Assembly (NCBI RefSeq): GCF_003931565.1
Contig: NZ_RRYI01000001.1
Coordinates: 310,001 to 374,000, forward strand
Length of the DNA stretch: 64,000 nucleotides
Origin: Caulobacter sp. 602-1
GTDB lineage: Bacteria > Pseudomonadota > Alphaproteobacteria > Caulobacterales > Caulobacteraceae
Direction of reading: 5' to 3'
The translations under genes were made by a program, and so were the position numbers. The notes below the pieces were generated by a model. The model searched no databases, was not told the origin of the DNA, and saw only the letters and a program-made list of their open reading frames with translations. Of this stretch, positions 44,207 through 60,483 are shown piece by piece. Within the stretch, counting starts at the first letter, position 1; every line of letters begins with the position of its first letter.

Positions 44207-45222
44207 AGTGCGTTCCCGCCGATGAGCTCGGGATTGGGCAGGATCACGACCTTGCCGTCCCGCGCCGCGCCGCTCTCCATTTCGTGACGCATGGCGTCCT
44301 TGAAATCACTGAGCGGATAGGTCGCGGCGATCTTGGCGACGAGCAGGCCGTCCGCCGACCAGTTGGCCAAGGACGTCATCATCTTCTGCTTGTCGTCGAC
44401 GGACAGGTCGACCTCGAAATAGGGAGTGCAGAATCCGCGCAACGTCAGGTCCCGCATCAGGAAAAGGTCGCCGGCCACCTGGCAGGGTTGGCCCGACATC
44501 ATGCCGTAAACCGCGAGCACGCCTCCAATGTCCAGGCTCTCGGCCATGCGGTTCGTCGCCGCGCCGGCCACCGCGTCGATGCCATAGCGGATTTTCGCGC
44601 CGCCGGTGGCTTCCGAGACGCGTTCCCGCAGATCGTCGCCGTCGACCACCACCTTGTCCGCGCCTAGCGCGAGCAGATCGGGAACGAGTTCCTGGCGCCG
44701 CACGACATTGATGGTCTTCAGGCCCAGTTGCTTGGCGATGCTGATGTTGAACCGGCCGCAGCTGGAATTCGCCGCGTTCTGAAGGACCCACTCGCCAGGC
44801 TTCAAATCAACGACGCGTGTCATCATCGCGTAGCTGGTCGCGCCGTTGATCGGCATCAGCGACAACTGCACCGGATCGCCGTGATTGACGGCCTTGGTCA
44901 GCTTCTCGGTCTTGACCTTTACATACTGGCTGAAAGTGCCGCCGCGACGGGGAAGAAAGACGCGATCCCCGATCTCGAAGCCGCCGTCGGCGCCGATCTG
45001 GGCGATGCGTCCGCACGCTTCGATGCCGGCCATGGCCGGCGGCGCGGGCGCCCACTGGGGCAGGCGCCCCTCCATGTAGAAGAGGTCCGCCATGTGGATC
45101 GGCGTGGCCTCGATCTGCACGATCGCTTCGTCGGCCTGCGGGTCACCTAGATCAATCGTATCAAGTTCGGCCACCTCGAGAGGGGCGCCGTTGCGCTTAT
45201 AGACGACCGCCAAGGTTTTCAT
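44203..45222 (-). CDS. MDR-family oxidoreductase, enoyl reductase (MECR)-like
   Basis: A 339-residue medium-chain dehydrogenase/reductase without Zn ligands. It has PPAMAGIEACGRIAQIG, the substrate/NADPH segment LMPINGATSYAMMTRVVDL, WVLQNAANSSCGRFNISIAKQLGLKTINVVRR and DAVAGAATNRMAESL, all close to trans-2-enoyl-CoA/ACP reductase ETR1/MECR. It probably reduces an activated double bond with NADPH. It is the second gene of the - strand operon, separated from the receptor gene by a strong hairpin. In a maleimide route, reduction of a vinyl side chain or an enone would be one option. Confidence 0.88.
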   Translation of the reverse strand: MKTLAVVYKRNGAPLEVAELDTIDLGDPQADEAIVQIEATPIHMADLFYMEGRLPQWAPAPPAMAGIEACGRIAQIGADGGFEIGDRVFLPRRGGTFSQYVKVKTEKLTKAVNHGDPVQLSLMPINGATSYAMMTRVVDLKPGEWVLQNAANSSCGRFNISIAKQLGLKTINVVRRQELVPDLLALGADKVVVDGDDLRERVSEATGGAKIRYGIDAVAGAATNRMAESLDIGGVLAVYGMMSGQPCQVAGDLFLMRDLTLRGFCTPYFEVDLSVDDKQKMMTSLANWSADGLLVAKIAATYPLSDFKDAMRHEMESGAARDGKVVILPNPELIGGNAL

Positions 45223-45305: not shown

Positions 45306-47477
45306 CTAGTAGTTGAAGCTGATCCGAGCCATCACGACGCGAGGGTCGGCCGGGTAGCCGGCCACTGACGGCGAGGTGGCGTTGGCGACCTGCAGTACAG
45401 CCGCGTAGTACTTCTCGTTCGCGAGGTTCTTGCCCTCGACCGAGAAGGTCCAATGGCCGTTCGGGGTCTGATAGGCGACCGACGCGTTGAGCAAGCCGCG
45501 CGAGCCCGTCTTCTCGAGATCGACGGTGTTCGACACGTTGTTCCAGTAGCCGGAGATGTAGGTCCAGCCGCCATTCAGACGGATCTTGCCCTGGATGTCG
45601 AGGTCGGGGGTGTAGGTGAAGCCAGCCGAGGCCTGCGTCGGGATGAGCGCCTTGATCTCGCGATCCTGGCAGTTGCGGATGACGTTGTAGGCGTCGCTGC
45701 AAGAGAACGGCGCGGTGTACTTGCCGTCCTGGTGCGAGAAGGAGCCGTAGAGCTCGAGCGCCTGGTTTGGCCGATAGTTGGCCTCCAGTTCGATGCCCTG
45801 GACCCGGGCGCCCGTCGCGTTGGACGTATAGGTGTTGACCGTTCCGGGGAAATAGACCGGCAGTTGCAGGCCGTTGTACACGGCCCTGAAGATCGCGCCG
45901 TTCAGACGGAAGCGATTGTCGGGCGTCTGGTACTTGAAGCCAGCTTCGTAGCTTTTGACCTTTTCCGGATCATAGGCGATCGGGCCGCCTTCGATCCCCG
46001 TACCGGTATTGGTGTTTGGCGAGATGGCGTTGAAGCCGCCGCTCTTGAAGCCCTTGGTGAAGGACACATAGGTCATGAACGACGGTTGGATCTGCCATTC
46101 CAGCCCGATCTTCGGCGTCCAGGCCTTCCAGTCCTGCTTCGCGGCCTGACCGTAGGTCCGCTGCGTATAATAGGCCTGCGTGAATTTGGTCTGTTCGTAG
46201 GTGTAGCGAAGACCGCCCGTCAGCCCGACGGTGTCGGTGATCTTGAACGTCCCCTGGGCATAGGCCGCCGCGGCGTCCGTCTTGCGATACAGGTTCTTGG
46301 GCGGCGACGTGATCGGCTCGAAGTCGTAGGCGTTTTCGTTGAAGTAGTAGACTCCCACGACGCCCTTGAACCGTTCCGTGTCGTAGCTCGCGTTGAACTC
46401 CTGGCTCCAACTTTTGTCGTGAATGTCGAAGTCGATCAGGATCGGCGCGGTGTTCGTCACCATCACCAGCGGAATGATCAACCGATTGTTCAGGCGCCGA
46501 TAGCTGCTGATGGAGTTCAGGGTCCAGTCGCCGACCTCGTAGCGGGCCTGCACGCCGGCGCCCCAGGACGTCAGGTTGCCGTAGTGTTTCCCGGTGATCT
46601 CGGTGGTGAACGGATCGCGGTCGGGCTTGGCGAGCGGAAAGGTGACCCCAGGATAGTTGGTCAGGTTGACGCCCGTCAGGGAATGGGACTTGTCCTTGGT
46701 GTAGTCGGCGGTCGCCGTGATGGTGAACCTGTCGGTGGGCGTGTAGTGCAGCTTCCCACGCGTCGAGATGAGGTTGCGGTTGTTCAGCTTGTCGCCGGTG
46801 ATCGTGTTCTCCACGAGCCCGTCTCGGCGGCGGTAAAGCCCGCTGATCGAGGCGGTGAGATTGTCCGCGAGCGGACCCGCGACATAGGCGCGGGCGTCAA
46901 GGGTGTTGAAGCTGCCGTAGGCGACGTCGCCTGACACCTCCGGTGTCTGGCCGGGCGTCTTGGTGATGATGTTGATCGCGCCGCCCGAGGCGTTGCGGCC
47001 ATAGAGGGTGCCTTGCGGCCCCCGCAGCACTTCCACCCGATCCACGTCGGAGAAGTCGAACAGCGCGCCGTTGGTGCGCGGCATATAGGCGCCGTCCACG
47101 TAGATCGCCACGGCCGGGTCGGCCAGGATGCCGGAGTTGTCCTGCCCCGCACCGCGAATATAGATCCGGGCCGCGTTGGACACGGCGGTCGGGGGCGAGA
47201 TCAGGGTGTTGGGAAGGCTGTTGCTGAGGTCGCGAACGCTCGTGATCTGACGGTTCTTGAGCGTTTGGGCGGTGAGGGCGGTCACAGCCACGGGCGAGCG
47301 CTGAAGGTTCTCGGACGTGCGTTGAGCGGTGACGATGATTTCTTCCAGAGCGCTCTGATCGTTCGCTTGATCCTGGGCCCAGGCTCCAGGCGCCGATAGC
47401 AAAGCTGCCGACGAGACCGTCGCGAAGACTGTAATTCCCATATAAATGGAAGACTTGCGCCTATAGATCTTAGTCAT
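45306..47477 (-). CDS. TonB-dependent receptor of the catabolic cluster
   Basis: A 723-residue receptor, shorter than the sugar receptors. It has a signal peptide ending in GAWAQ, TonB box LEEIIVTAQRTSENLQ, plug motifs SVRDLSNSLPN and IYIRGAGQD, and DVDRVEVLRGPQGTLYGRNASGGAINIITKTPG. The barrel ends in VVMARISFNY. This pesticin/FyuA-like subgroup often imports aromatic or siderophore-like molecules. It has an AGGGGA ribosome site nine bases from the ATG and heads the eight-gene operon. Uptake of a tetrapyrrole fragment or other bulky organic molecule would fit the neighbours. Confidence 0.92.
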   Translation of the reverse strand: MTKIYRRKSSIYMGITVFATVSSAALLSAPGAWAQDQANDQSALEEIIVTAQRTSENLQRSPVAVTALTAQTLKNRQITSVRDLSNSLPNTLISPPTAVSNAARIYIRGAGQDNSGILADPAVAIYVDGAYMPRTNGALFDFSDVDRVEVLRGPQGTLYGRNASGGAINIITKTPGQTPEVSGDVAYGSFNTLDARAYVAGPLADNLTASISGLYRRRDGLVENTITGDKLNNRNLISTRGKLHYTPTDRFTITATADYTKDKSHSLTGVNLTNYPGVTFPLAKPDRDPFTTEITGKHYGNLTSWGAGVQARYEVGDWTLNSISSYRRLNNRLIIPLVMVTNTAPILIDFDIHDKSWSQEFNASYDTERFKGVVGVYYFNENAYDFEPITSPPKNLYRKTDAAAAYAQGTFKITDTVGLTGGLRYTYEQTKFTQAYYTQRTYGQAAKQDWKAWTPKIGLEWQIQPSFMTYVSFTKGFKSGGFNAISPNTNTGTGIEGGPIAYDPEKVKSYEAGFKYQTPDNRFRLNGAIFRAVYNGLQLPVYFPGTVNTYTSNATGARVQGIELEANYRPNQALELYGSFSHQDGKYTAPFSCSDAYNVIRNCQDREIKALIPTQASAGFTYTPDLDIQGKIRLNGGWTYISGYWNNVSNTVDLEKTGSRGLLNASVAYQTPNGHWTFSVEGKNLANEKYYAAVLQVANATSPSVAGYPADPRVVMARISFNY

Positions 47478-47840: not shown

Positions 47841-48767
47841 TCAGGCCTGCTCGCTCTCCGCGAATAGATCCGCGGCCTCGCCGGCCGTGACCGCCGCGAA
47901 GCCGCTCGCGCCCGCCAGACCGGCGAGCATCCGGCGAAGGGACGCGATCCGGAAAGGCTGGCCAGCCACATAAGGCGTCAGCGTGAACCCGAGCACCCGG
48001 CCGCCGAAACGCTCGGCGTCGCCTGAAAGGTAGGCCTGCGCGGCCAGAACCTGATCGGCCCATTGGTCCTCGGTCTGGCGTCGATCGTTCAAAAGCGCGC
48101 GGTCATCCAATTCGTTGGAGATAGGCAGCGAAAGGATCCCGCCGGCCGGCGTCGCCATCGGCAGCGGAACCTCGTCCGACTCCCAATCCAGGCAGACCTC
48201 GAAGCCCGCTCCGGCGAGCAATTCCAGTGTGGAGAACGACTGCTGACGAGCTGGGCTCATCCATGTCCTGGGCGAAAGTCCCGCCTCGGCGAACGCCGCC
48301 TTGGTCTCCTCGATCCAGGCGTTCTCGGTCTCGCGGTCCAGGCCGCCCCAGTGGATGTGATCGGTGTCGACTCCGTAGGCCGCCACCTCGTGGCCGTCTT
48401 CCAGGATCGACTCGATGAGCGGCTTCAACCGCGGCAGCAACACGGCGTTGATCGGGAAGGTAGCCTTGAGACCTTCCCGCTTGAGGGCGTCGAGGATGCG
48501 GAAGACACCGACGCGAGCGCCATAGTCGCGGGTGGTGTAGTGGCGCAGGTCCGGATAGGGCGTGACCATCGCGCCCGGATGCTTGAACGGCTTGCCCGAC
48601 GGATTGAGCATGTGATGCTCGAGCGGAACGACGATGACGCCAAGCACCGACGTTCCGCCTGGCCAGGCGATCCTTGGCCGCGAGATCGCCGGCCGCCAGT
48701 CGTACAGCGATTGGTCCATGCCGTAGGCGCGATGCGGATAGTCCAGATATTCCGAGGGCATCGGCAT
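47841..48767 (-). CDS. NodB-fold hydrolase 1 (PuuE / cyclic imide hydrolase-like)
   Basis: A 308-residue protein of the polysaccharide-deacetylase fold. In its N-terminal half it has WPGGTSVLGVIVVPLEH, RDYGARVGVFRILDALKREGLKATFPINA and DGHEVAAYGVDTDHIHWG. This subgroup includes allantoinase PuuE and bacterial cyclic imide hydrolases rather than sugar deacetylases; there is no signal peptide, so it is cytoplasmic. The 'SHG' motif of relatives reads AYG here (residues 130-132), so it may be the less active partner of the protein encoded just upstream, three bases away. A role in opening a cyclic imide is inferred. Confidence 0.85.
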   Translation of the reverse strand: MPMPSEYLDYPHRAYGMDQSLYDWRPAISRPRIAWPGGTSVLGVIVVPLEHHMLNPSGKPFKHPGAMVTPYPDLRHYTTRDYGARVGVFRILDALKREGLKATFPINAVLLPRLKPLIESILEDGHEVAAYGVDTDHIHWGGLDRETENAWIEETKAAFAEAGLSPRTWMSPARQQSFSTLELLAGAGFEVCLDWESDEVPLPMATPAGGILSLPISNELDDRALLNDRRQTEDQWADQVLAAQAYLSGDAERFGGRVLGFTLTPYVAGQPFRIASLRRMLAGLAGASGFAAVTAGEAADLFAESEQA

Positions 48768-48770
48768 CGG

Positions 48771-49718
48771 TCAGTCCTCCGTCAGTTCGAAGCCGGTCCC
48801 GCCGGTCGCCAGTCCTCTGGCCTCGATGTCGGCGACCGTCTGGTCCCAGTACTGTTCGCGATAGACCTGGGCGATCTCGGCGGCGGTCGCGAACCAGACG
48901 TCGGAGCCGTGGTCGACGATATGGGTCAGGGCGTCTTCGAACGCGCGGATGCGGTGTGGCTGGCCGACCAGATAGGCGTGAAGCGGGATGCACATCACCG
49001 TGCCGCTGCGGTCGCCCTCCTCCAGCAACTGGTCGAAGTGCCGCTTCAGCACCTCGGCGTAACGCCAGGGATCCATGGCGAGCGCGCCATAGGTGATGAC
49101 GTCGTTGACCTCCAGCGAATAGGGCATCGAGACGAGACGCCCGCTTTTGGTCTTCAGCGGCTGCGGCTGGTCGTCCTGGAAGAGGTCGCAGGTGTACCAG
49201 AAGTCGTATTCCGCCAGCAGGTCGAAGGTCCGCTCGGTGTGGGTGAGCGCCGGGGCCAGATAGCCGCGGATCCGCTGCCCAGTGGCGCTCTGGATCGAGC
49301 GGATCGAGTCCTCGATGATAGCCCGCTCCTGGGCTTCATCCATGCCGTAGGAGTAGCGGGTGTTGTAGATGCCGTGGGAGAAGAACTCCCAATTGCGCTT
49401 GGCGCAGGCCTCGATGATTTCCGGATGGTGGTCGATGAGCGCGGTCGACAGCGAGATCGAGCCGCGCAGGCCAAAGCGATCCATCAATTCCATCAGCCGC
49501 CAATGACCGACGCGGTTGCCCCAGTCGCGCTGGGAATAGCCGACCACATCCGGGGACGGTTTGGGCCAGCCCGGCCGCGACGGGTTCTTCGGCGGGTCGA
49601 ATTCGTAGAACTCGATGTTGGGCGCGATCCAGAAGGCGAGCTTCTTGCCGCCTGGCCAGACGATCTTGGGCCGGTTCCGATACGGCCAATAGTCGTAGAG
49701 GTTCGGATCGGCGCGCAT
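48771..49718 (-). CDS. NodB-fold hydrolase 2 (PuuE / cyclic imide hydrolase-like)
   Basis: A 315-residue cytoplasmic NodB-fold protein. It has IVWPGGKKLAFWIAPNIEFYE, RDWGNRVGHWRLMELMDRFGLRGSIS (64-89), WEFFSHGIYNTRYSYGM (110-126) with the conserved SHG, YLAPALTHTERTFDLLAEYDFWYTCD and LHAYLVGQPHRIRAFEDAL. This pattern matches the allantoinase PuuE / imidase group. The start at 49718 lies four bases after the lyase stop; an ATG at 49742 would overlap it. Co-transcription with a hydratase and lyase suggests opening of a maleimide-type ring. Confidence 0.87.
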   Translation of the reverse strand: MRADPNLYDYWPYRNRPKIVWPGGKKLAFWIAPNIEFYEFDPPKNPSRPGWPKPSPDVVGYSQRDWGNRVGHWRLMELMDRFGLRGSISLSTALIDHHPEIIEACAKRNWEFFSHGIYNTRYSYGMDEAQERAIIEDSIRSIQSATGQRIRGYLAPALTHTERTFDLLAEYDFWYTCDLFQDDQPQPLKTKSGRLVSMPYSLEVNDVITYGALAMDPWRYAEVLKRHFDQLLEEGDRSGTVMCIPLHAYLVGQPHRIRAFEDALTHIVDHGSDVWFATAAEIAQVYREQYWDQTVADIEARGLATGGTGFELTED

Positions 49719-49722
49719 GGAC

Positions 49723-50622
49723 TCAGCGCTCCGCGGCCGCACGGTAGAGCTCCAATTTGAGGCCTGGATCGTAGCGATCTCCGAGCGTGGCCATCTCGTC
49801 GATGCCGAGGCGCTCGTTCAGTCCCTTGAAGTCGAGCATGCTGCGCAGCATCGGCTGAGTGGAGCCGTTTTCGCGCAGGCTCTTCAGGAAGACTTCGGCC
49901 TGATGCACCAGATTGCGCACGAGCGCGCCCGGCGAGATCACCAGCTTGAAGCCCATGTCGGAGAGCTGGGCCAGGGTGAAGGGCGGCGTCGTTCCTCCCT
50001 CCACCATGTTGGCGATGAGCGGAACGCCAGGCAGGGCCTTCACGATGGCTCTCATCTCCGCCTCGGTGCGCGGCGCCTCGACGAAAATGACGTCGGCTCC
50101 GGTCTCGCGATAGCGCACCGCCCGCTCGATCGCTTCCTCGAAGCCGATCACGGAGATGGCGTCCGTTCGCGCGATCACCAGGGTCTCGGCGGACTCGCGG
50201 GCGTCAAGCACGGCGGCGAGCTTGCCGCACATCTCCTCCACGGAGATCACCGTCTTGCCCGCCAGGTGGCCGCAGCGCTTGGGGAAGGACTGGTCCTCGA
50301 TTTGCATCGCCGAGGCCCCGGCGCGCTCCAGCAGCTTGATCGTGCGGCGAGCGCTGATCGAGCCGCCGAAGCCGGTGTCGGCGTCGACGATGATCGGCAC
50401 GGACACCCGTTCGCGAATCCGCGCCGTCACGTCGACCACATGGTCGAGGCTTACGAGCCCGATGTCGGGCCTGCCCAGCTGGGTGTAGGAGATCGCCGCG
50501 CCCGAAAGATAGACCGCCTCGAACCCGGCGTTCTCGATCATCAGCGCCGAAAGAGGATCGTAGGCCCCGGGGGCGAGAAGGGCCTCACTCCCGGCCAGCC
50601 TCTGCGACAGGGTTTTATTCAT
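49723..50622 (-). CDS. 2,3-dimethylmalate lyase-like enzyme (PEP mutase/isocitrate lyase superfamily)
   Basis: A 299-residue lyase. It has PIIVDADTGFGG with D80 and D82, AMQIEDQSFPKRCGHLAGKTVI with catalytic Cys117, VIARTDAISVIGFEEA, FVEAPRTEAEMR and NMVEGGTTPPFTLAQLSDMG. The 'PKRCGHLxGK' form is that of 2,3-dimethylmalate lyase and related oxaloacetate-type hydrolases rather than of methylisocitrate lyase. It would cleave a 2,3-dialkylmalate into a 2-oxoacid and a saturated acid. Its start overlaps the end of the hydratase small subunit by eight bases. Confidence 0.9.
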   Translation of the reverse strand: MNKTLSQRLAGSEALLAPGAYDPLSALMIENAGFEAVYLSGAAISYTQLGRPDIGLVSLDHVVDVTARIRERVSVPIIVDADTGFGGSISARRTIKLLERAGASAMQIEDQSFPKRCGHLAGKTVISVEEMCGKLAAVLDARESAETLVIARTDAISVIGFEEAIERAVRYRETGADVIFVEAPRTEAEMRAIVKALPGVPLIANMVEGGTTPPFTLAQLSDMGFKLVISPGALVRNLVHQAEVFLKSLRENGSTQPMLRSMLDFKGLNERLGIDEMATLGDRYDPGLKLELYRAAAER

Positions 50623-51112
50623 CGTCGGACTCCGGCGCCGCCAGACGGCGCTTTAGGTGCGGCAATAGCCCGCCGTCGCGGATCATCGCCATGATATGAC
50701 GGGGGAGGGGCTCGAGCTCATAGGTCTTGCCCGTCGTTAGGTTATCGAGGGCGCCTTCCTCCAAGCGGATCTGCAACTGATCGCCTGGCGAGATTTCAGC
50801 CGCCTGTCGGAACACGACCGCCGGGACGCCGAGATTGATGGCGTTGCGGAAGAAGATTCGCGCGAACGACGTCGCCAAGACCGCCGAGACGCCCAGCAGC
50901 TTCAGTGACACCGCCGCCTGTTCGCGCGATGACCCCATACCGAAATTGGCGCCGGCGACCACGAGATCGCCCTGACGCACGCTGGAGGGGAAGGACGGGT
51001 CGAGCGCCTCCAGGCAATGGCTGGCGAGTTCCCGAGCGCTGGATTTCATGTAGGCGCCGGGCGCCAGGAGGTCGGTGTCGACATTGTCGCCGAAGACGAA
51101 CGCGCGGCCCAT
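50615..51112 (-). CDS. LeuD/DmdB-like hydratase small subunit 2
   Basis: A 165-residue swivel subunit of the short (archaeal/DmdB) type, with FVFGDNVDTDLLAPGAYM, VVAGANFGMGSSREQAAVSL and FFRNAINLGVPAVV. It overlaps its large subunit by one base (TGATG) and the lyase gene by eight. Two-subunit hydratases of this shape include 2,3-dimethylmaleate hydratase (DmdAB) and archaeal homoaconitase-like enzymes. Small and large subunits differ clearly in type from the other LeuCD pair in the window, so the two pairs are not a recent duplication. Confidence 0.9.
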   Translation of the reverse strand: MGRAFVFGDNVDTDLLAPGAYMKSSARELASHCLEALDPSFPSSVRQGDLVVAGANFGMGSSREQAAVSLKLLGVSAVLATSFARIFFRNAINLGVPAVVFRQAAEISPGDQLQIRLEEGALDNLTTGKTYELEPLPRHIMAMIRDGGLLPHLKRRLAAPESDDE

Positions 51113-52389
51113 CACGCCGCTTCCTGTTCGAGAAGCTCGCGGGGATCGCTGATCGCGCCCACGACGGCGGCGGCGGCCACCGAATAGGGCGAGCCCAGGA
51201 AGACCTTCGCGCCCGATGAGCCCATGCGGCCCTGGAAGTTGCGGTTGGTCGAGGAGATGCAAACCTCGCCCTGAGCCAGCACGCCGGCCCCGTAGCCCGC
51301 GCAGGCGCCGCAGCCGGACGGCATCAGCGTGGCGCCGGCTTCCATCAGCACCGAGAGCGTGCCGTCGGCGGCGGCCAAGGCCGTGGTTTTCGACGAGGCC
51401 GGCGCCACGAGCAGCCGCACGCCGGGCGCGACCTTGCGGCCCTTGAGCACGGTCGCGGCCATGCGCAGATCCTCGATCTTCGCCCCCACGCAGGCGCCGA
51501 TATAGGCTTGGTCGATCTTCTGGCCGGCCAGCTCACCGACGTCGAAGGTGTTGGCCGGTGAGTGCGGCGCGGCGATCTGCGGGGCGAGTTCCGATGCGTC
51601 GAAGACATGGGTCGCGGCGAAGACGGCGTCGGGATCGGAGGCGAGCGCCAGGGCGGCGACTTCGTCCTCCACAGGACGACCGCGCTCGCGCAGATAGGCG
51701 AAGGTGACGTCGTCGGGCGCGACGACGCCCGTCTCGGCTCCGAGTTCGGCGGCCATGTTGGCCAGCACCATTCTTTCGGGCATGCCCATGGCCTCGACGG
51801 CGGTCCCCGCGTACTCGATGGCGCGGAAGGCGTTGTCGAGGCCGAGCGTCTTGCAGAGACGCAACATGACGTCCTTGGCCGAGATCCCGCGCCGCAAGCG
51901 GCCGTTCAGGATCACGCGCACGGTCTCAGGGCATTGGAGCCAGGTCTCGCCTGTGGCCACGATGCCCGCCATGTCGGTCGCGCCATAGCCCGCCGCATAG
52001 GTTCCGAAGGCGCCGGCCGTCGGCGTGTGGCTGTCCCCGCCGGCGATAAAGGCGCCGGGGCGGATCAGGCCGTGGTCGGGCAGGAGCAGGTGGCTGATGC
52101 CAACCATGTCGAAGAAATTGCGCACGCCATAGTCGCGGACGAATTCACGGGTGACGCGCAGGATCTCGGCGGTCTCGGCGTCGACGGCGGGAACGTAGTG
52201 GTCGGAGACGATGACCACCTTGTCGGGGTCCCAGAGCCCGACGCCGAGCTCCTCGAGCATCGGGCGCCAACGGCGCGGGCCTGAGGAGTCATGAGCGAAG
52301 GCCAAGTCGACCTTGGCGGTCACCATCTGGCCGGGTTTGACGCTGTTCAAGCCGGCGGCGCGCGCGATGATCTTCTCGACCATTGTCAT
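51112..52389 (-). CDS. LeuC/DmdA-like aconitase-family hydratase large subunit 2
   Basis: A 425-residue aconitase-superfamily protein of the short type. It has [71 protein letters not shown] and an Fe-S site with Cys in [17 protein letters not shown] and [13 protein letters not shown]. The usual GSCTN reads GACVG, a departure from true isopropylmalate isomerase. The start at 52389 (MTMVEK) was chosen by homology; upstream ATGs exist to 52458. It heads the five-gene operon hydratase (two genes), lyase, NodB 2, NodB 1. Confidence 0.9.
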
Positions 52390-52626
52390 CGCGGCCCGGC
52401 TCTCCGCATCCCCGATCGCACCAGGCAACAGCTTGCTCTCCCCGCTCCTTCGCATCATGGGCCCACCCTAAGCGGCGGCGCGGATCCGTATAGGTCGAAG
52501 CTACAGCCTTATCCGCTGTGCGACCAAGACCGTCTCCGAACTGGCGATCCGGCCGGGCTCGGCGGAGTTGGAACGCGAGCACGAACCGATAGCGGCCGAT
52601 CCCAAAGTCCGGCCAGAGGAGCATCC
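52390..52626. promoter_or_regulatory. Divergent control region, hydratase 2 operon / gcdH
   Basis: A 237-base divergent gap between the hydratase and glutaryl-CoA dehydrogenase starts. It contains CCTAAGCGG near 52467-52475 and CTTATCCGC near 52507-52515; similar TAAGCGG and ATCCGC/CGGAT pieces recur before the IclR gene. That makes it a likely shared control point for both arms of the pathway. Confidence 0.4.
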
Positions 52627-53817
52627 ATGTCCGCCGCCCCGGGGCAAAGCCAGAAGACGTTTCGCTGGGAAGATCCATTCGACCTCGCCGCTCGACTCAC
52701 TGACGAAGAGCGGATGATCTGGGAGACAGCGCGGCAATACGCCCGCGAAAAGCTCATGCCCCGGGTCGTTGAGGCCTATGCCGAGGAGCGCTTCGACCGA
52801 GAGATCCTCACGGAAATGGGCGCGTTGGGCTTCCTCGGCCCGACCCTGCCCGAAGAGTACGGCGGCGCTGGCGTCAGCCACGTCGCCTATGGGCTCATCG
52901 CCCGCGAAATCGAGGCTGCCGATTCCGGCTATCGGTCCGCGATGAGCGTGCAATCCTCACTCGTCATGTATCCGATCCATGCCTTCGGCTCCGAGGCGCA
53001 GAAGCGGAAGTTCCTGCCGGCCATGGCGGCGGGCGAGGTGGTGGGGTGCTTCGGCTTGACCGAACCCGACGGCGGCTCCGATCCGGCCTCCATGCGCACG
53101 GTCGCCAAAAAGGTTGACGGCGGCTATGTGCTCAATGGCGCCAAGATGTGGATCACCAACAGCCCCATCTGCGACGTGGCCATCGTTTGGGCCAAGCTCG
53201 ACGGCGTGATCCGCGGCTTCCTTGTCGAGCGGGGCGCGGAAGGCTTCAGAACACCCACGATCCGCAACAAGCTGTCGTTGCGCGCCTCCGTCACTGGAGA
53301 GATCGCGCTGGCCGACGTGTTCGTGCCCGAGGACATGATCTTGCCGGGCGTATCGGGCCTGCGCGGGCCGTTCTCCTGTCTCAACAAGGCGCGCTACGGG
53401 ATCGCCTGGGGCGCCATGGGCGCCGCCGAGTTCTGCCTCCACGCCAGCCGCGACTATGTCTCCAGCCGCTCGCTATTCGGGCGCTCGCTCGCGTCGCGTC
53501 AGCTCGTCCAGAAGAAGCTCGCCGACATGCAGACCGAGATCGCGCTCGGCTTCGAAGGGGCCTTGGCGCTCGGCCGGCTGCTCGACGAGGGGGCGTGGGT
53601 TCCCGAGGCCATCTCGATGATGAAGCGCAACAACTGCGGCAAGGCGCTCGACATCGCCCGTGTCGCTCGCGATATGCACGGCGGCAACGGAATTTCCGGC
53701 GAGTATCACGTCATGCGTCACGCCGCGAACCTCGAGACGGTGAACACCTACGAGGGCGCCCATGACGTCCACGCCCTGATCCTGGGCCGCGCCATCACCG
53801 GCGAGAGCGCCTTCTAG
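52627..53817 (+). CDS. gcdH: Glutaryl-CoA dehydrogenase
   Basis: A 396-residue acyl-CoA dehydrogenase with features diagnostic for glutaryl-CoA dehydrogenase: [18 protein letters not shown] with the substrate-carboxylate Arg103, [68 protein letters not shown] and catalytic Glu376 in [20 protein letters not shown]. It converts glutaryl-CoA to crotonyl-CoA and CO2 using FAD/ETF. From memory it is very similar to the human enzyme over long stretches. It is divergent from the hydratase-lyase operon and 29 bases before an amidohydrolase gene. Its presence implies that the cluster makes glutaryl-CoA. Confidence 0.96.
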
Positions 53818-53846
53818 AATGACCCGCAAGCAAGGGAGTTGAACCG

Positions 53847-54539
53847 ATGACGGATCTTGTCTTCGAACCAACCATGGTCCGCGAGCACAAAACCGCGCGC
53901 GAGCTCTACGATGTCGTGAAAGCCAACCCCGCCCGGGCGCGGTTCGGCTTTGGCGAGAAGCTGGCGATCATGAATATCGACTTTCAGCAGGCCTATACGC
54001 GGCCCGATCTGTTTCCGAAGAGCGCCTATGTCACCGACCCGAGGCAGATCGAACACACCAACCGCATATCGGCCCTCGCGCGCGCCAAGGGCATGCCAGT
54101 GATCTGGAGCCGCGTCGCCTATAAGCCCGACGGGGGCGACGCGGGCGTCTGGGGTACGCGAACCGATACGCCAGATTCCCTGCAGAACATTAAGTACGAG
54201 AGCGAGCGCCATCTGTTCGATCCGCGGGTGGAGATCGACGAAGCGCGCGACCTCGTGTTCACCAAGCGGATGCCATCGGCCTTCTTCGAGACGCCGCTGG
54301 CCAGCTACCTCGTCTGGCACAAGGTCGACACCGTCGTGATCACCGGTGGCTCGACCTCGGGCTGCGTGCGGGCGACGGCGGTGGACTCGCTCTCCCACGG
54401 CTACCGCACCATCGTTCCGGAGCAGTGCGTCGCCGACAAGCATGAGAGCTACCACTTCGCCAATCTAACCGACCTTCTGCTCAAGTACGCCGATGTGGTT
54501 GATGTCGGTGAGGTCGAGGCCTGGCTTTCCGCGCGGTAG
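53847..54539 (+). CDS. Isochorismatase-fold amidohydrolase (maleamate amidase-like) C
   Basis: A 230-residue cysteine hydrolase with triad D45 (AIMNIDFQQAYT), K140 (VFTKRMPSAFFET) and C173 (GGSTSGCVRATAVDSL). TSGCVRA plus FANLTDLLLKYADVVD place it with N-carbamoylsarcosine amidases and maleamate amidohydrolases. The N-terminal 40 residues are an extra helical segment. It would release ammonia from a half-amide made by an imide hydrolase. It shares an operon with gcdH, and its stop abuts that of the convergent CoA-transferase. Confidence 0.92.
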   Translation: MTDLVFEPTMVREHKTARELYDVVKANPARARFGFGEKLAIMNIDFQQAYTRPDLFPKSAYVTDPRQIEHTNRISALARAKGMPVIWSRVAYKPDGGDAGVWGTRTDTPDSLQNIKYESERHLFDPRVEIDEARDLVFTKRMPSAFFETPLASYLVWHKVDTVVITGGSTSGCVRATAVDSLSHGYRTIVPEQCVADKHESYHFANLTDLLLKYADVVDVGEVEAWLSAR

Positions 54540-55763
54540 TCAGATCGCGCCCTTCGACGCCAGGCTGTCGAGCGCGTCCTCCGAAAGCCCCAGGCGTTCG
54601 GCCAGAACGGCGCGGGTGTCGGCGCCCAGGGCCGGCGGCGCCAAGCGATACTCCAGCGGCGTCCGCGAAAGCCGGATCGGCGAGGCGACGGTGCGGATCG
54701 GCGCTTCAAGGTCGTCGCGGGCCTGCTCGACCACGGCGCCGCGCGCGATCGCTTGAGGTTCGGCGAAGGCCTGGGCGACCGAATTGATCGGGCCGCAAGG
54801 CACGCCGGCGCGATCGAGCAGTCGCGCCCATTCCGCCGTCGTGCGTCCGCGCAAATGCGACCTCAGGACCTCCACGAGCTCGGCTCTGTTCCTGACGCGC
54901 GAGGCGTTGGTCTGGAACCTCGGATCGGTCGCCAGTTCGTCGTCGCAAAGGGCCGCGAAGGCGCGAAACTGGGCGTCGTTGCCGATCGCCAGGACCAGGG
55001 CGCCGTCAGCGGTCTCGAACACCTGATAGGGAACCAGGTTCGGGTGAGCATTGCCCAGCCGCCCGGGCGATCGCCCCGAAGCCAGGTAGTTCGACGCCTG
55101 GTTGGCGAGCATGCTCAGCTGGACGTCGAACAAGGCCAGATCGATGTGCTGACCCTGCCCGGTCGCCCGCACGTGCAGCAGGGCCGCCAGGATCGCGGTC
55201 GCCGCGTACATGCCGGTGAACAGGTCGACGACGGCCACGCCCGTCTTCATGGGCTCGTCGCCCGGCGCGCCGGCGGGTTGGCCCGTGATGGACATCAGTC
55301 CGCCCATGGCCTGGATCATGGCGTCGTAGCCAGCGCGACTGGCCTCCGGCCCCGTCTGGCCAAAGCCGGTGATCGAACAGTAGATCAGCCGGGGGTTCAG
55401 CTTGGCGAGACTGGCGTAGTCGAGACCATGGCGGCCGAGTCCGCCCACCTTGAAGTTTTCGACGAGAATGTCGGCCTGCATCGCCAAGGCGCGGACGATG
55501 TCTCGACCTTCCTCGGTCGCCAGGTTCGCGGTGACCGACCTTTTGTTGCGGTTGGCCGAAGTGAAGTAGGCCGCGTCGCGGCGCGCGTCCGCCTCGTTGT
55601 CACCGTCGAGGAACGGCGGGCCCCAGGCGCGGGTGTCGTCGCCCGCGCCAGGCCGTTCGATCTTGACCACTTCGGCGCCCAGATCGGCAAGTGTCTGGGT
55701 CGCCCATGGCCCCGCGAGCACGCGCGTGAGATCCAGCACCGTTACGCCCCTAAGAGGTCCCAA
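54540..55763 (-). CDS. Class III CoA-transferase (glutarate/SUGCT-like)
   Basis: A 407-residue CaiB/BaiF family protein. It has MGPLRGVTVLDLTRVLAGPW, DLGAEVVKIERPGAGDDTRAWGPP, RNKRSVTANL, YCSITGFGQTGPEASRAGYD, active-site Asp213 in LALFDVQLSM, VPYQVFETADG and GVPCGPINSVAQAFAEPQ. The N-terminal third reads very much like human succinyl-CoA:glutarate CoA-transferase (SUGCT). It would activate glutarate or a similar dicarboxylate to its CoA ester for GcdH. The 104-base gap to the upstream lyase-like gene suggests one transcript. Confidence 0.92.
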   Translation of the reverse strand: MGPLRGVTVLDLTRVLAGPWATQTLADLGAEVVKIERPGAGDDTRAWGPPFLDGDNEADARRDAAYFTSANRNKRSVTANLATEEGRDIVRALAMQADILVENFKVGGLGRHGLDYASLAKLNPRLIYCSITGFGQTGPEASRAGYDAMIQAMGGLMSITGQPAGAPGDEPMKTGVAVVDLFTGMYAATAILAALLHVRATGQGQHIDLALFDVQLSMLANQASNYLASGRSPGRLGNAHPNLVPYQVFETADGALVLAIGNDAQFRAFAALCDDELATDPRFQTNASRVRNRAELVEVLRSHLRGRTTAEWARLLDRAGVPCGPINSVAQAFAEPQAIARGAVVEQARDDLEAPIRTVASPIRLSRTPLEYRLAPPALGADTRAVLAERLGLSEDALDSLASKGAI

Positions 55764-55867
55764 AAGCCCGCTCTCCTAATTTGGCGAGAACACTAGCGTC
55801 ACCGGGGCGGTCGACGAGGGGGCTCGCGCGCGCTACCCGAACTGCGGATAGCGGCGCACGGAAGGCG

Positions 55868-56683
55868 TCAGGATTTCACGACTCCGATGGGCCGAAGCCG
55901 GCGCGGTGGCGTGAGGCCGCTCAGCGCCCGCGGCGCGGCTTGCGACATAGCGTTCAGGAGGGCGAACGGGCTCAACGCCATCGCATAGCCGAGATCTTCC
56001 AGCACCGCCGCCGTCATACCTTCGCCGCGGTCGAACTCGAGGTCGTAGATCAACGGGATGCGGCCGGCGAAGTGCGCCGCCACCCGCTGTGCTGACGCGC
56101 GATCCGAAGCGCGATCCACCAGAATCAGGTCGGCGCCGGCTTCGAGATAGGCCTCCAGGCGGTCGAGCGCCGCGGCCAAGCCTTCAACACCCGCGGCCTG
56201 GGTGCGGACGATGATCAAGGCGTCCGCCCGCGTGTCGAGAGCCGCCTTGAGCTTACCGATCATGTCGGCCGGACGGACGACAATGTCGCCAGCGCCCTCC
56301 TGCGCGCTGCCGGGGCTGACGGCGTCCGAGATGTTGATCGCCGAGGCGCCGGCGCGCTCGAACAGCTTAACCGTCCGGATGACGTTGAGCGCGTTGCCGT
56401 ATCCAGCCTGGGCGTCGACGATCAAAGGCAGATCGGAGCTTTCGCGGATGGACCGCGTGAGGTCGGCGATCTCTCCGAACGTGACCTGATCCTCGTCGGG
56501 GCGACCGTACCGGGCCATGGCCACCGTACGGGGCGACAGACCGAGAGCGACGGCCCCGGCTTCGGCGGCGATACGGGCGCTGAAGGCGTCCCAGCAGCCC
56601 GGCGCCGCCAGCAGGCCGCCGCCGCCCCGCGCGCGCGCGGCCACCATGGCTTCGAAGTTCGACACGTGGGCCTTTGCGGCCAT
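55868..56683 (-). CDS. Degenerate isocitrate lyase/PEP mutase superfamily protein
   Basis: A 271-residue barrel protein from the chosen start MAAKAHVS. It keeps the superfamily frame (LLAAPGCWDAFSARIAAEAGAVAL, LIVDAQAGYGNALNVIRTV) but the second metal-site Asp is Gln92. The KRCGH loop is replaced by DAVSPGSAQEGAGD (120-133), so the catalytic Cys is missing. It may be a lyase with altered chemistry (decarboxylase- or hydrolase-like) or a non-catalytic protein. A GGGGGA site supports 56683; ATGs to 56755 are open. It is divergent from the IclR gene. Confidence 0.85.
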   Translation of the reverse strand: MAAKAHVSNFEAMVAARARGGGGLLAAPGCWDAFSARIAAEAGAVALGLSPRTVAMARYGRPDEDQVTFGEIADLTRSIRESSDLPLIVDAQAGYGNALNVIRTVKLFERAGASAINISDAVSPGSAQEGAGDIVVRPADMIGKLKAALDTRADALIIVRTQAAGVEGLAAALDRLEAYLEAGADLILVDRASDRASAQRVAAHFAGRIPLIYDLEFDRGEGMTAAVLEDLGYAMALSPFALLNAMSQAAPRALSGLTPPRRLRPIGVVKS

Positions 56684-56955
56684 GCTCGTCAGTTCCCCCG
56701 AGAGTCCAACGGGAAATAGCTTTGTAAGCATAGGGAGAGCTTTCGAAACCGTCACGCGTTGGGTGCCTAACCCTCGGCGGGCGCCCGCAACTTAATCCGC
56801 TTAGCCGCTGGTCGGTCGTTTAGGCGAGCCAAACTTCCTATCCGGCTCGATTGAAGTTCAAATTTTATCGCCTGGCGGATAAATATGGCTAAGCGGTTCG
56901 CGAGCGTGGAATCCGGCACAGAGTTTCGAACAATGTTCTGAGGAGAGCTCGCCAA
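56684..56955. promoter_or_regulatory. IclR / lyase-3 divergent control region with inverted repeat
   Basis: A 272-base divergent gap. CCGCTTAGCC (56797-56806) and GGCTAAGCGG (56887-56896) form an exact 10-base inverted pair 80 bases apart. CGGATAAAT (56876-56884) lies next to the second arm and repeats a sequence before the NCS1 permease. A GGTTCGCGAGC element follows. IclR regulators commonly autoregulate, so this is the prime place for its operator. The ribosome site for the + gene is GAGGAG. Confidence 0.5.
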
Positions 56956-57753
56956 ATGGAAAAAGGCGTTCCCATTCGGTCCGTTACCCGAAGCCTGGCC
57001 GTCCTGCGGGCGATCAACCGCGCCGGCTCCTTGTCGATGATGGATATCGCCGTTCAGTCGAAGGTTCCCTATCCGACCGCCTGTCGGATTGTGCAGACCT
57101 TGCTGCACGAGGGCATGATCGAGCGGGAGCCCGCCAGAAAGCACTATCGCCCGACGGCGCTCGTTCAGACGCTCGCCAGCGGTTACCAGGACTTCAGCCG
57201 GGTCACCTCAATCGCGCGCCCCCATATCGTCGCCCTGACGAAGAAGCATCTCTGGCCGATGTTGATCGCCACCCGCGTCGGGCAATCGATGATGGTGCGC
57301 GACAGCACCCATGCCCTGACATCGTTGAGCTTCAACAACTACCATCCTGGCGACACCTTCCCCTTGCTCGAGTGCGCGTCCGGGCGGGCCTACATGGCGT
57401 TCGCCACCGAAGAGGAGAGGGCGGGCATTCTGGAGAGCATCGACGAGGTCGGGCCGGGAATCGATCCGCATACGCTATCGCTGTTCCAGTCGGGCATCCT
57501 GTTTGAAGAGATCCGCGACGCGGGCTATGCGACGCGCGCCAGGAACCGCTTCACCTCCACGCCGGGCAAGACGTCCTCGATCGCCGCGCCCATTTTCGAA
57601 GACGGCGTGGTCTGCGGCGCGTTGACGCTGGTGTTCTTCTCTTCCGCGATAAAGATGGACGAGGCCGCCAGCCGCTACGCCGACGATCTGATCGCGGCCG
57701 CCCGGATGATCAGCGATGAGCTGCGGGACGTTCAGGGCCGCGCGGCCGCCTGA
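56956..57753 (+). CDS. IclR-family transcriptional regulator (MhpR-like)
   Basis: A 265-residue protein with an N-terminal winged helix (SVTRSLAVLRAINRAGSLSM, YPTACRIVQTLLHEGMIERE) and an IclR effector domain (RVGQSMMVRDSTHALTSLSF, FPLLECASGRAYMAFATEEE, TPGKTSSIAAPIFEDGVVCG). The layout is close to MhpR/PcaR-type activators of aromatic and dicarboxylic acid catabolism. It is the only regulator in the 33-kb catabolic cluster and is divergent from lyase 3 and the CoA-transferase, so it is the probable pathway regulator. Confidence 0.93.
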   Translation: MEKGVPIRSVTRSLAVLRAINRAGSLSMMDIAVQSKVPYPTACRIVQTLLHEGMIEREPARKHYRPTALVQTLASGYQDFSRVTSIARPHIVALTKKHLWPMLIATRVGQSMMVRDSTHALTSLSFNNYHPGDTFPLLECASGRAYMAFATEEERAGILESIDEVGPGIDPHTLSLFQSGILFEEIRDAGYATRARNRFTSTPGKTSSIAAPIFEDGVVCGALTLVFFSSAIKMDEAASRYADDLIAAARMISDELRDVQGRAAA

Positions 57754-58998: not shown

Positions 58999-60483
58999 TT
59001 ATTCGCGTCCCGCCGAGGCGGGCTTGCGGTAGTCCAGAGCCGGCGGGCGGTCGCCCAGCATGGCCTTGTAGGCGAAGTTGGGGCCGCGACGCTGGTCCAG
59101 TTCGGCCTTCGCCTTCTTGACGACGTCGGGATTGGAGAAGAGATCCGCGCCGGTCAGGGCCAGGGTCTTGGCGGCGTTGACCGCGCCCTTGACGCCGATC
59201 GAGGAGCCGGCGGCGGCCACGTTCTGCCAGCTGTGTCCGGCCGAGCCCGGAACGAAGGTGGCGGTGCCCAGGCCGACGGTCGGGGTGACCCAGCTGATGT
59301 CGGAGACGTCGGTCGAGCCGCCGCCGCCTTCCAGCTCGATCTTGTAGGGTTCGATCGTCTTGACAGTGTCGATCGACGGCGCGCCGGGCAGGGTCTCCTG
59401 CATCTTCTTGGCGAAGGCCTGCTCCTCGGGAGTCCAGGTAATGCCGCCGACCTTGCGCAGGTTGGCGTCCATGACGCGGCCAAGGGTGTCGTTGGGCAGC
59501 AGGGCGTAAACGCCGCCGGTGATTTCCTTGTCGACCGTCGTGCCGGTGGCCAGGGCCGCGCCCTCGGCGGCCTTCTCGACCCGCGACCAGACGTCCTTGA
59601 CGACGGCGGGATCGGGGTGGCGGACGTAGTAATAGACCTCGGCGAAGTCGGGGACGACGTTGGGCGCGGTGCCGCCGGCGGTGATCACATAGTGGATGCG
59701 CGTCTTGTCGGGGGTGTGCTCGCGCAGGAAGTTGGTGGCCACGTCCATGACCTCGACGCCGTCCAGCGCCGAACGGCCCTTCTCGGGCGCGCCGGCGGCG
59801 TGGGCCGAAATGCCGTGGAAGCGGAACTTGCCGCTGATATTGGCCATCGACACGCCCTGAACGGCCGAGTTCGCGTTGGCCGGATGCCAGTGCAGCGTGG
59901 CGTCGACGTCGTTGAACAGGCCGTCGCGGACCAGATAGACCTTGCCCGAGCCGCCTTCCTCGGCGGGCGTGCCGAACACGCGCAGCTCGCCCTTGATGTT
60001 GTTCTTGACCATCCAGTCCTTGATGGCGACGGCGGCGCCGACCGAGGCCGCGCCGAACAGGTTGTGGCCGCAGCCGTGGCCGGCGATCTGGCCAGGGATC
60101 GCGGTCTTCACCGGCGCGGCGGTCTGGGCCAGGCCGGGCAGGGCGTCGAATTCGGCGAGGATGGCGATGACCGGGCCGGCGCCGTTCTTGAAGCTGGCCA
60201 CGAAGGCGGTGGGTTCGCCCGCGACGCCGGCCTTCACGTCGAACCCGGCCGCCTTCAGCTGGCCTTGCAGCAGGGCCGAGCTCTTGACCTCCTGATAGCC
60301 GACCTCGGCGAAGCCCCAGATCTTCAGGGCCGCGTCCTGGATCTGCGGGGCGTCAGCGTCGACGGCCTTGAGGATCTGGGCGCGGGCGGCGTCGCTGAGC
60401 GGCGCGGCTTGGGCCTGGGTCATGAGCACGCCCGTCGCCATGCTGGCGGACAGAAGGGCGAGCTTCAGAGCGGAAAGCTTCAT
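58999..60483 (-). CDS. Exported M20-family amidohydrolase (AbgB-like)
   Basis: A 494-residue protein with a signal peptide ending in TQAQA. It has metal-site motifs [57 protein letters not shown] and PGSAGHSWQ. It is close to p-aminobenzoyl-glutamate hydrolase subunit B and other periplasmic amidohydrolases that cut aminoacyl amides. Single gene; 115 bases separate it from fecR. Confidence 0.92.

What the first reader, a model, noticed from the sequence alone, without database searches (positions are those of the whole stretch)
47841..56683. Candidate pathway for a disubstituted maleimide, possibly hematinic acid, ending in glutaryl-CoA and crotonyl-CoA
Seen: in 9 kb there are two PuuE/cyclic-imide-hydrolase-like proteins, a maleamate-amidase-like hydrolase, a DmdAB-like hydratase, a dimethylmalate-lyase-like enzyme, a SUGCT-like CoA-transferase and glutaryl-CoA dehydrogenase. 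Known: imidase plus half-amidase turn imides to dicarboxylates; DmdAB hydrates 2,3-dimethylmaleate, and the lyase splits dimethylmalate to pyruvate and propionate. Inference: with 3-(2-carboxyethyl)-4-methylmaleimide (hematinic acid, an oxidation product of haem, bilins and chlorophylls) the same chemistry gives C8H12O7, which splits into pyruvate and glutarate. That explains why glutarate-activating and glutaryl-CoA enzymes sit here. I know of no described bacterial pathway of this kind but could not search.
Basis: partly seen in the sequence, partly recalled or inferred. Interest (0 to 1): 0.93.

Follow-up and report, generated by a model that had tools for sequence, protein, structure and literature searches.

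The report
Hematinic acid breakdown gene cluster
A Caulobacter gene cluster encodes a likely pathway that would turn hematinic acid, a fragment of haem and chlorophyll, into pyruvate and glutarate; related clusters carry either of two known sets of glutarate-degrading genes, which supports that predicted product, but no enzyme has been tested.

Summary
Relatives show a conserved system: a core (amidase-like ISO plus paired PuuE-like NodB2 and NodB1) with one of two modules. Module a, as in the window, is a LeuCD-type hydratase plus an ICL/PrpB-superfamily lyase. Module b is another LeuCD, a CaiB CoA-transferase and an HMG-CoA-lyase-like protein. Of 398 genomes of the order, 77 match NodB2: 35 have only a, 36 only b, 3 both, 3 neither. 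Three neighbours point to glutarate as module a's product. GcdH lies about 2 kb from the lyase in 19 of the 22 a-only genomes that have it (0 of 14 b-only). A Burkholderia plantarii plasmid carries the whole set with a SUGCT-like CaiB, GcdH and ETF. One Caulobacterales genome without a GcdH match has GlaH and LhgO in the cluster; GlaH is in 0 of the 398. A lyase that releases glutarate implies a carboxyethyl side chain; hematinic acid is the natural maleimide that fits best. Against: 15 of 37 a-only genomes have no GcdH match; the NodB proteins are PuuE-like, so a ureide is a rival; 7 of 12 plasmid neighbourhoods read had no LeuCD nearby; nothing has been assayed.

The parts
47841..48767 (-). 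NodB1, PuuE-like NodB-fold protein, predicted partner or second ring-opening hydrolase
   Evidence: PF01522 37 bits, cut-off 23.1; PuuE model 38 bits, far below cut-off; model closest to PuuE-type structures
48771..49742 (-). NodB2, PuuE-like NodB-fold protein, predicted imide ring-opening hydrolase
   Evidence: PuuE model 118 bits; 93.6 bits to 3cl6 PuuE allantoinase, 30.3 to 3qbu; predicted fold closest to 3s6o and PuuE; in 77 of 398 genomes of the order
49723..50622 (-). ICL1, ICL/PEP-mutase-superfamily lyase, predicted methylhomoisocitrate lyase
   Evidence: PrpB model 282.7 bits, cut-off 354.4; K, C, G and H of the KRCGH loop invariant in 14 aligned sequences
50615..51112 (-). LeuD, hydratase small subunit
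   Evidence: LeuD/DmdB subfamily above cut-off; Lys aligned with the Arg of homoaconitase 2pkp, Lys in 33 of 33 module-a loci
51112..52458 (-). LeuC, hydratase large subunit (aconitase superfamily)
   Evidence: PRK00402 511 bits, cut-off 385; hacA_fam 463.8, cut-off 385.7
52621..53817 (+). GcdH, glutaryl-CoA dehydrogenase
   Evidence: 556-557 bits to solved glutaryl-CoA dehydrogenases; only close homologue in its genome; about 2 kb from ICL1 in 19 genomes of the order
53847..54539 (+). ISO, isochorismatase-fold amide hydrolase, predicted half-amidase
   Evidence: PF00857; 108.9 bits to solved N-carbamoylsarcosine amidohydrolase 26st, active-site Cys aligned
54540..55763 (-). SUGCT-like CaiB CoA-transferase, predicted glutarate activation
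   Evidence: NF052585 499.5 bits, cut-off 750; 344 bits to solved succinate-hydroxymethylglutarate CoA-transferase 9br6; next best in own genome 37% identity
55868..56755 (-). ICL2, second ICL-superfamily protein without the KRCGH loop, role unknown
   Evidence: PF13714; loop missing in the translation; 1 of 80 related loci
56956..57753 (+). IclR-family regulator, possible regulator of the cluster
   Evidence: PF09339/PF01614
45306..47477 (-). TonB-dependent receptor, possible uptake
   Evidence: TIGR01783 189 bits, below cut-off 223.5; beside the cluster also in L015

Best explanation
The cluster most likely encodes a pathway that would open and hydrolyse a maleimide bearing a 2-carboxyethyl group, most likely hematinic acid, then hydrate and split the resulting acid to pyruvate and glutarate, and consume the glutarate through glutaryl-CoA. 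Predicted steps: NodB2 (with NodB1) opens the imide; ISO removes the second nitrogen as ammonia, leaving 2-methyl-3-(2-carboxyethyl)maleate, the methyl homologue of cis-homoaconitate; LeuCD adds water to give 'methylhomoisocitrate'; ICL1 cleaves it as methylisocitrate lyase cleaves its one-carbon-shorter substrate; the SUGCT-like CaiB makes glutaryl-CoA; GcdH makes crotonyl-CoA. Shown here: the genes, their families, their conserved co-occurrence, the exchange of the lyase module for a CaiB + HMGL-like module in other genomes, and GcdH or GlaH-LhgO beside the cluster. Inferred: every reaction, the substrate and the order of steps.
For: NodB2 co-occurs with ICL1 in 38 of 40 and with the module-b lyase in 39 of 40 genomes that have them; within 77 NodB2 genomes the two lyases exclude each other: 35 a only, 36 b only, 3 both, 3 neither, p = 6e-15. 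GcdH lies 1.9-2.0 kb from ICL1 in 19 of 22 a-only genomes that have GcdH, in four genera of two families, and within 10 kb of the b lyase in 0 of 14. Genome G007 without a GcdH match carries GlaH (451 bits, cut-off 333) and LhgO (586, cut-off 299) on the strand of the cluster; GlaH in 1 of 27 and 0 of 398 genomes. Burkholderia plantarii plasmid p1 carries the whole set with GcdH (64%), SUGCT-like CaiB (56%) and ETF. Rhodospirillaceae bin L093 has GcdH at 66% beside module a. Lys in the LeuD loop in 33 of 33 loci, where homoaconitase has Arg (weak).
Against: 15 of 37 a-only and 23 of 37 b-only genomes have no GcdH match at the threshold. SUGCT-like genes of 54% identity or more are in 2 of 80 loci. 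NodB2 is closest to PuuE, a ureide hydrolase, and ISO to N-carbamoylsarcosine amidohydrolase. Module-b LeuD also carries a basic residue near the loop site. 7 of 12 plasmid neighbourhoods read, of 26 records hit, show no LeuCD within about 12 kb. No gene specific to tetrapyrroles was identified in the neighbourhoods annotated. Nothing was assayed.
Confidence: 0.5

Rival explanations
1. Same reaction logic, other imide: the substrate is a methyl- or dialkyl-maleimide or -succinimide without a carboxyethyl group (citraconimide, dimethylmaleimide, ethylmethylmaleimide); the lyase yields acetate, propionate or butyrate plus a keto acid, and GcdH is a neighbour for other glutarate sources.
For: GcdH has no match in 15 of 37 a-only genomes; solved 2,3-dimethylmalate lyase and petal death protein score about as high as methylisocitrate lyase against ICL1 (173.6, 188.8 and 181.4 bits).
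Against: GcdH, SUGCT + GcdH + ETF, and GlaH-LhgO recur beside the cluster in unrelated settings.
Confidence: 0.2
2. A ureide module: NodB2/NodB1 open a hydantoin-like ring as PuuE does, ISO removes a carbamoyl group, and LeuCD + lyase act on the unsaturated acid left.
For: NodB2 is closest to PuuE and ISO to N-carbamoylsarcosine amidohydrolase.
Against: Both are far from the curated allantoinase (118 and 38 bits, cut-off 424.6) and RutB/biuret hydrolase models. In some relatives without ISO next to the NodB pair an asparaginase or amidase lies by it, which fits amides better than ureides. No common ureide was thought of that leaves a maleate-type acid.
Confidence: 0.12
3. A six-membered imide route: glutarimides from pyridine catabolism are opened and deamidated straight to glutarate or hydroxyglutarate, as in the fungal HxnM-HxnN nicotinate pathway; LeuCD and lyase belong to another pathway.
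For: HxnM is a NodB-fold imidase (PMC9304392, passages); an HspB/PnpA-like monooxygenase lies near the core in a few loci.
Against: 74 of 77 NodB2 genomes of the order carry one of the two hydratase-associated lyases, which such a route would not need.
Confidence: 0.08
4. Hematinic acid with the opposite regiochemistry: hydration and cleavage give 2-oxoglutarate plus propionate (module a) or propionyl-CoA (module b), which needs no GcdH.
For: 23 of 37 b-only genomes have no GcdH match and in none is it near the b lyase.
Against: For module a the GcdH, SUGCT and GlaH-LhgO neighbours point to glutarate. For module b no product-specific neighbour was found.
Confidence: 0.1

Closest known systems
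Dimethylmaleate hydratase DmdAB and dimethylmalate lyase of Eubacterium barkeri nicotinate fermentation (pathway recalled; no sequence compared)
   Same: LeuCD-type hydratase followed by an ICL-superfamily lyase that splits a 2,3-disubstituted malate
   Different: There the acid comes from nicotinate and gives propionate + pyruvate; here an imide-opening core precedes and glutarate is the predicted product
End of the methylcitrate cycle (aconitase-type hydratase + PrpB methylisocitrate lyase)
   Same: Predicted intermediates are one-carbon homologues; ICL1's best curated model is PrpB
   Different: ICL1 is below the PrpB cut-off; the hydratase is LeuCD-type; product glutarate instead of succinate
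HxnM imidase and HxnN amidase of Aspergillus nidulans; Pseudomonas putida YZ-26 imidase (PMC9304392, passages)
   Same: NodB-fold imidase followed by an amide hydrolase, releasing ammonia from a cyclic imide
   Different: Six-membered imide in the fungus; HxnM's nearest structure is 3qbu, whereas NodB2 is nearer PuuE; other amidase family; no hydratase or lyase step
PuuE allantoinase
   Same: Nearest solved relative of NodB2 by sequence and predicted fold
   Different: Far below the PuuE cut-off; two paralogues in tandem; different neighbours
Glutarate catabolism of Pseudomonas putida: glutaryl-CoA dehydrogenation, and CsiD(GlaH)-LhgO (PMC5974017, abstract)
   Same: Each route occurs beside the cluster in different organisms
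   Different: There glutarate comes from lysine; here it would come from an imide

Membership tests
Glutaryl-CoA dehydrogenase (52621-53817) | Full-length match to solved glutaryl-CoA dehydrogenases well above other acyl-CoA dehydrogenases | tested here: met
   556-557 bits to 3gnc, 3eom, 3d6b and 526 to 1sir, against 226 or less for acyl-CoA enzymes with other names; the 561-bit top hit 4w9u is named only acyl-CoA dehydrogenase
Glutaryl-CoA dehydrogenase (52621-53817) | Oxidative decarboxylation of glutaryl-CoA | not testable with these tools
   needs an assay
Succinate-glutarate CoA-transferase (54540-55763) | Curated equivalog cut-off of NF052585 | tested here: not met
   499.5 bits, cut-off 750; still the best of 7 families listed. 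Called SUGCT-like, not filed as a member
Methylisocitrate lyase PrpB (49723-50622) | Curated equivalog cut-off of TIGR02317 | tested here: not met
   282.7 bits, cut-off 354.4
ICL/PEP-mutase lyase superfamily (49723-50622) | Family match and the KxCGH catalytic loop (loop role recalled) | tested here: met
   PF13714 167 bits; K, C, G, H invariant in 14 sequences
LeuD/DmdB subfamily (50615-51112) | Curated cut-off of TIGR02087 | tested here: met
   181.1 bits, cut-off 108.95
Homoaconitase small subunit (50615-51112) | Curated equivalog cut-off of HacB2_Meth | tested here: not met
   171.5 bits, cut-off 230
Dimethylmaleate hydratase DmdAB | Orthology to E. barkeri DmdAB and activity on dimethylmaleate | not tested
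   no DmdAB sequence was at hand
Allantoinase PuuE (NodB1, NodB2) | Curated cut-off of TIGR03212 | tested here: not met
   38 and 118.1 bits, cut-off 424.6
Cyclic imide hydrolase of the YZ-26/HxnM type (NodB1, NodB2) | Orthology to the P. putida imidase | not tested
   no imidase sequence at hand; indirectly against: 3qbu, the nearest structure of HxnM (PMC9304392), scores 30 bits with NodB2 against 94 for PuuE
GlaH and LhgO in relative G007 | Curated equivalog cut-offs | tested here: met
   GlaH 451.2, cut-off 333; LhgO 586.4, cut-off 299

The most novel reading that the evidence does not exclude
A widespread and mobile bacterial pathway mineralises the pyrrole-derived imides left when haem, bilins and chlorophyll are oxidised. 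Its centre is a 'homo-methylcitrate' cleavage: a LeuCD-type hydratase and a methylhomoisocitrate lyase turn ring-opened hematinic acid into pyruvate and glutarate, and a second, unrelated module (CoA-transferase plus HMG-CoA-lyase-like enzyme) does the matching cleavage at the CoA level. Where a TcuA-like flavoprotein (c44) is present, the pathway would also take the reduced succinimides from chlorins.
Probability: 0.4. Interest if true: 0.88.

Novelty: new variant of a known kind. Interest (0 to 1): 0.8.

Why it matters
Oxidation of chlorophyll and haem leaves hematinic acid, reported in leaves and lake sediments (PMC7318184, passages). The paper searches made here (open-access library;'s 72 papers 20 were listed) listed no paper that by its title or abstract start describes a bacterial pathway for it. 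If the prediction holds, the last steps of tetrapyrrole mineralisation get a genetic basis, a new lyase activity is named, and marker genes (NodB2, ICL1, the module-b lyase) become available for waters and soils. The exchange of two lyase modules on one core would also be a clean case of replacement of a whole module by an unrelated one.

Tried and rejected
The LeuD loop as proof of the substrate: rejected, because module-b LeuD also has a basic residue near the site, and the residue's role in homoaconitase is recalled; PMC7308503 (passages) says only that this flexible loop is the substrate-recognition region. GcdH as a universal partner: rejected, 15 of 37 a-only genomes have no match. Neighbourhoods of GcdH-less module-a genomes (L095, L096, L114, and the cut locus L067) were read by start of sequence and showed no obvious other glutarate gene. 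NodB1 as a dead partner subunit: dropped, since the Tyr of the window protein at the PuuE His position is His in 2 of 15 aligned NodB1 sequences. Genes recurring near the core in many loci (FAD oxidase, aldehyde dehydrogenase, DUF3108, DUF1838, VOC proteins, PaaK-like ligase, amidase, MmgE/PrpD pair) gave no substrate. Three TonB receptors scanned were below all haem and siderophore cut-offs. AlphaFold2 models of both NodB proteins (mean pLDDT 80.4 and 79.5) lie nearest PuuE-type structures and do not settle the substrate. Paper searches on dimethylmalate lyase and on homoaconitase loops did not help further.

Limits of the counts: one search kept the best 80 of 143 loci. Loci are at most about 21 kb and many are cut by contig ends. 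The 50-genome searches used 50 of the 80 loci's genomes. The ICL1 search gave 24 of 50 at E 1e-60; two weak ones (239 and 206 bits) were dropped before the count of 22. The 50- and 398-genome samples overlap; the statistics use the 398. GcdH was searched in 79 of the 398, the window's own taken. In one search the GcdH hit in L089 (27%) and the SUGCT hit in L090 (32%) were not counted. Relatedness of the genomes was not corrected for in the Fisher tests. Of 26 plasmid records, 12 neighbourhoods were read.
Full report
WHAT IS THERE. From 47841 to 57753 the window holds, with intact frames, NodB1, NodB2, ICL1, LeuD and LeuC on the minus strand, GcdH and ISO on the plus strand, a SUGCT-like CaiB and a second ICL-superfamily gene (ICL2) on the minus strand, and an IclR regulator on the plus strand; a TonB receptor lies at 45306-47477(-). 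Families come and from solved relatives. GcdH is clear-cut (556-557 bits to three solved sequences named glutaryl-CoA dehydrogenase) and has no other close homologue in its genome (next 167 bits). The CaiB has none either (next 37% identity). NodB2 is PuuE-like in sequence and predicted fold, NodB1 in fold; both are far below the allantoinase cut-off.

KIN OF THE WINDOW. The genome is a Caulobacter by this chain: ICL1 at C36:95111-95968 is found in G003, the genome of locus L020 (Caulobacter zeae), and the same place is listed as G191, same genus as the window. The cluster is accessory: 7 genomes of the genus, the window's own included, match NodB2, and at least 14 do not.

CONSERVATION. A scan of named genomes with a NodB1 alignment kept the best 80 of 143 loci, mostly Caulobacterales, Hyphomonadaceae and relatives. 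Mapped by tblastn, NodB1 and NodB2 are together in 67 of 80 and with ISO in 54. Module a (LeuC, LeuD or ICL1) is in 33, module b in 19 (one of them by its lyase alone), and no locus has both. Module b is a different LeuC/LeuD pair, a CaiB and an HMG-CoA-lyase-like protein (representative 283 bits, subfamily cut-off 246). In 12 of 80 loci NodB1 stands without NodB2, in 9 of these with a nitrilase-family gene.

GENOME-WIDE TEST. In 398 genomes of the order NodB2 matched in 77, ICL1 in 40, the module-b lyase in 40. ICL1 and NodB2 co-occur in 38 of 40 (p = 4e-29), the b lyase and NodB2 in 39 of 40 (p = 3e-31). Within the 77, 35 have only a, 36 only b, 3 both and 3 neither (p = 6e-15). These tests do not correct for relatedness. 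The overlapping sample of 50 named genomes agrees: 22 with ICL1 (300 bits or more), 30 with the b lyase, 4 with both, 2 with neither. Two unrelated lyases, each with a LeuCD-type hydratase, replace each other behind one ring-opening core. The simplest reading is that the core yields a substituted maleate, the hydratase a substituted malate, and the lyase splits it.

OUTSIDE THE ORDER the link is looser. NodB2 was hit in 26 plasmid records. Of 12 neighbourhoods read, 5 have LeuCD-type and lyase genes: Burkholderia plantarii (module a), Acidiphilium multivorum (module b), Sphingomonas JE1 (module b plus a second LeuCD and a 35% ICL1 relative), Neorhizobium and Rhizobium (module-b-type LeuCD with a 42-43% ICL1 relative). 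The other 7 show no LeuCD within about 12 kb. In Arthrobacter crystallopoietes the NodB pair is followed by an asparaginase and preceded by a xanthine-dehydrogenase-type hydroxylase; in Agrobacterium an amidase lies near.

WHAT IS THE PRODUCT. Three neighbours say glutarate for module a. First, GcdH lies 1.9-2.0 kb from ICL1, beyond LeuCD, in 19 of the 22 a-only genomes that have GcdH and within 10 kb of the b lyase in 0 of 14. The 19 fall in four genera of two families. In the 80 loci, 15 have GcdH of 65% identity or more, all with module a, among them a Rhodospirillaceae bin (L093). Second, G007, the genome of L026, has module a but no GcdH at the threshold. It carries, on the strand of the cluster, GlaH, LhgO, a TonB receptor, an unassigned gene, ISO, LeuC, LeuD, ICL1, NodB2 and NodB1 in this order. 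GlaH and LhgO pass their equivalog cut-offs. GlaH was in 1 of 27 genomes, this one, and 0 of 398, where the E. coli control rang. GlaH (CsiD) and LhgO are the CoA-independent glutarate route of P. putida (PMC5974017, abstract). Third, Burkholderia plantarii plasmid p1 carries ISO, NodB2, NodB1 and an MFS gene on one strand and LeuC, LeuD, a TcuA-like flavoprotein, ICL1, porin, two ETF-type genes, GcdH (64%) and a SUGCT-like CaiB (56% over 404 residues) on the other, with a transposase gene within 1 kb of each end. That is the window's set, self-contained, in another class.

WHY HEMATINIC ACID. If an ICL-type lyase releases glutarate, the carbon that becomes its alpha carbon must carry CH2CH2COOH. 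Two hydrolyses of hematinic acid (C8H9NO4) give C8H10O6 and ammonia; water gives C8H12O7, which splits into pyruvate (C3H4O3) and glutarate (C5H8O4). The ring-opened acid is the methyl homologue of cis-homoaconitate, the hydrated acid the next homologue of 2-methylisocitrate. ICL1's best curated model is PrpB. LeuD aligns with homoaconitase 2pkp and has Lys where 2pkp has Arg and isopropylmalate isomerase 3vba has Val; Lys is kept in 33 of 33 module-a loci and in the B. plantarii protein. That is weak, as module-b LeuD has a basic residue near there too. Gene content does not fix the methyl group; hydrogen or ethyl is not excluded. Hematinic acid is preferred because it is a known natural compound of this kind: leaves and lake sediments (PMC7318184, passages), and a product of the haem-degrading protein ChuS (PMC8131568, passage).

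WHAT SPEAKS AGAINST. 15 of 37 a-only and 23 of 37 b-only genomes have no GcdH match; eight of the 15 are one genus. They may use another dehydrogenase, make another product or, for module b, cleave the other way to 2-oxoglutarate and propionyl-CoA. SUGCT-like genes of 54% or more are in 2 of 80 loci, so glutarate would be activated differently elsewhere. NodB2 is nearest a ureide hydrolase and ISO nearest N-carbamoylsarcosine amidohydrolase, so a ureide substrate is a serious rival; the asparaginase and amidase beside NodB pairs elsewhere speak for amides. The three TonB receptors scanned are not classed as haem receptors.

WHAT IS KNOWN. Closest in logic are the dimethylmaleate branch of nicotinate fermentation (recalled), the end of the methylcitrate cycle, and HxnM-HxnN of Aspergillus (PMC9304392, passages). 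None of these combines imide opening with hydration and release of glutarate. Searches on hematinic acid with bacteria, degradation, catabolism or gene cluster, on imidases and on the predicted intermediates listed no paper on such a bacterial pathway; the library is open-access only. The enzyme families are known and the assembly appears new: a new variant of a known kind.

Noticed in passing
window 41473-45222(-): An acetoacetate-decarboxylase-family protein, an unassigned 223-residue protein, an MFS transporter and a quinone-oxidoreductase-like protein lie beyond the TonB receptor; of the 80 related loci only L015 showed this whole set.
   Followed up: partly
window 58999-60483(-): An M20-peptidase-type amidohydrolase beyond the IclR gene; a 54% relative lies in one related locus (L074).
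   Followed up: no
L027, L066, L068, L079, L083, L094; L118, L120, L121, L122: A flavoprotein (c44) like flavocytochrome c and tricarballylate dehydrogenase TcuA, below both cut-offs, recurs beside the cluster; it would suit oxidation of a substituted succinate to a maleate.
   Followed up: partly
L033, L034, L035, L043, L056: A flavin monooxygenase closest in solved structures to PnpA and HspB, with an Asp/Glu-racemase/arylmalonate-decarboxylase-like protein and a methyltransferase, near the core.
   Followed up: partly
L093:10854-17253(+): Five or more tandem VOC-fold proteins, some with apparent signal peptides, directly behind NodB1.
   Followed up: no
L057:1984-2980(+): NodB2 is split over two reading frames in this Terricaulis bin; the order sample has a genome with the same b-lyase place (G257) and no NodB2 match.
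   Followed up: no
L100 (G004:C35): A genome with module a (L021) also holds a full module b about 44 kb away on the same contig; the lyase match is reported with one stop codon inside.
   Followed up: partly
L038, L046, L047, L049, L050, L051, L055, L058: NodB1 without NodB2, followed by a YjbR-like and a nitrilase-family gene; in two of these genomes (L095, L096) LeuC-LeuD-ICL1 lie elsewhere beside a GntR regulator.
   Followed up: partly
L124 (Arthrobacter crystallopoietes pLDW-10): NodB pair behind a three-subunit xanthine-dehydrogenase-type hydroxylase and before an asparaginase: possibly an imide made by hydroxylation of an N-heterocycle.
   Followed up: no
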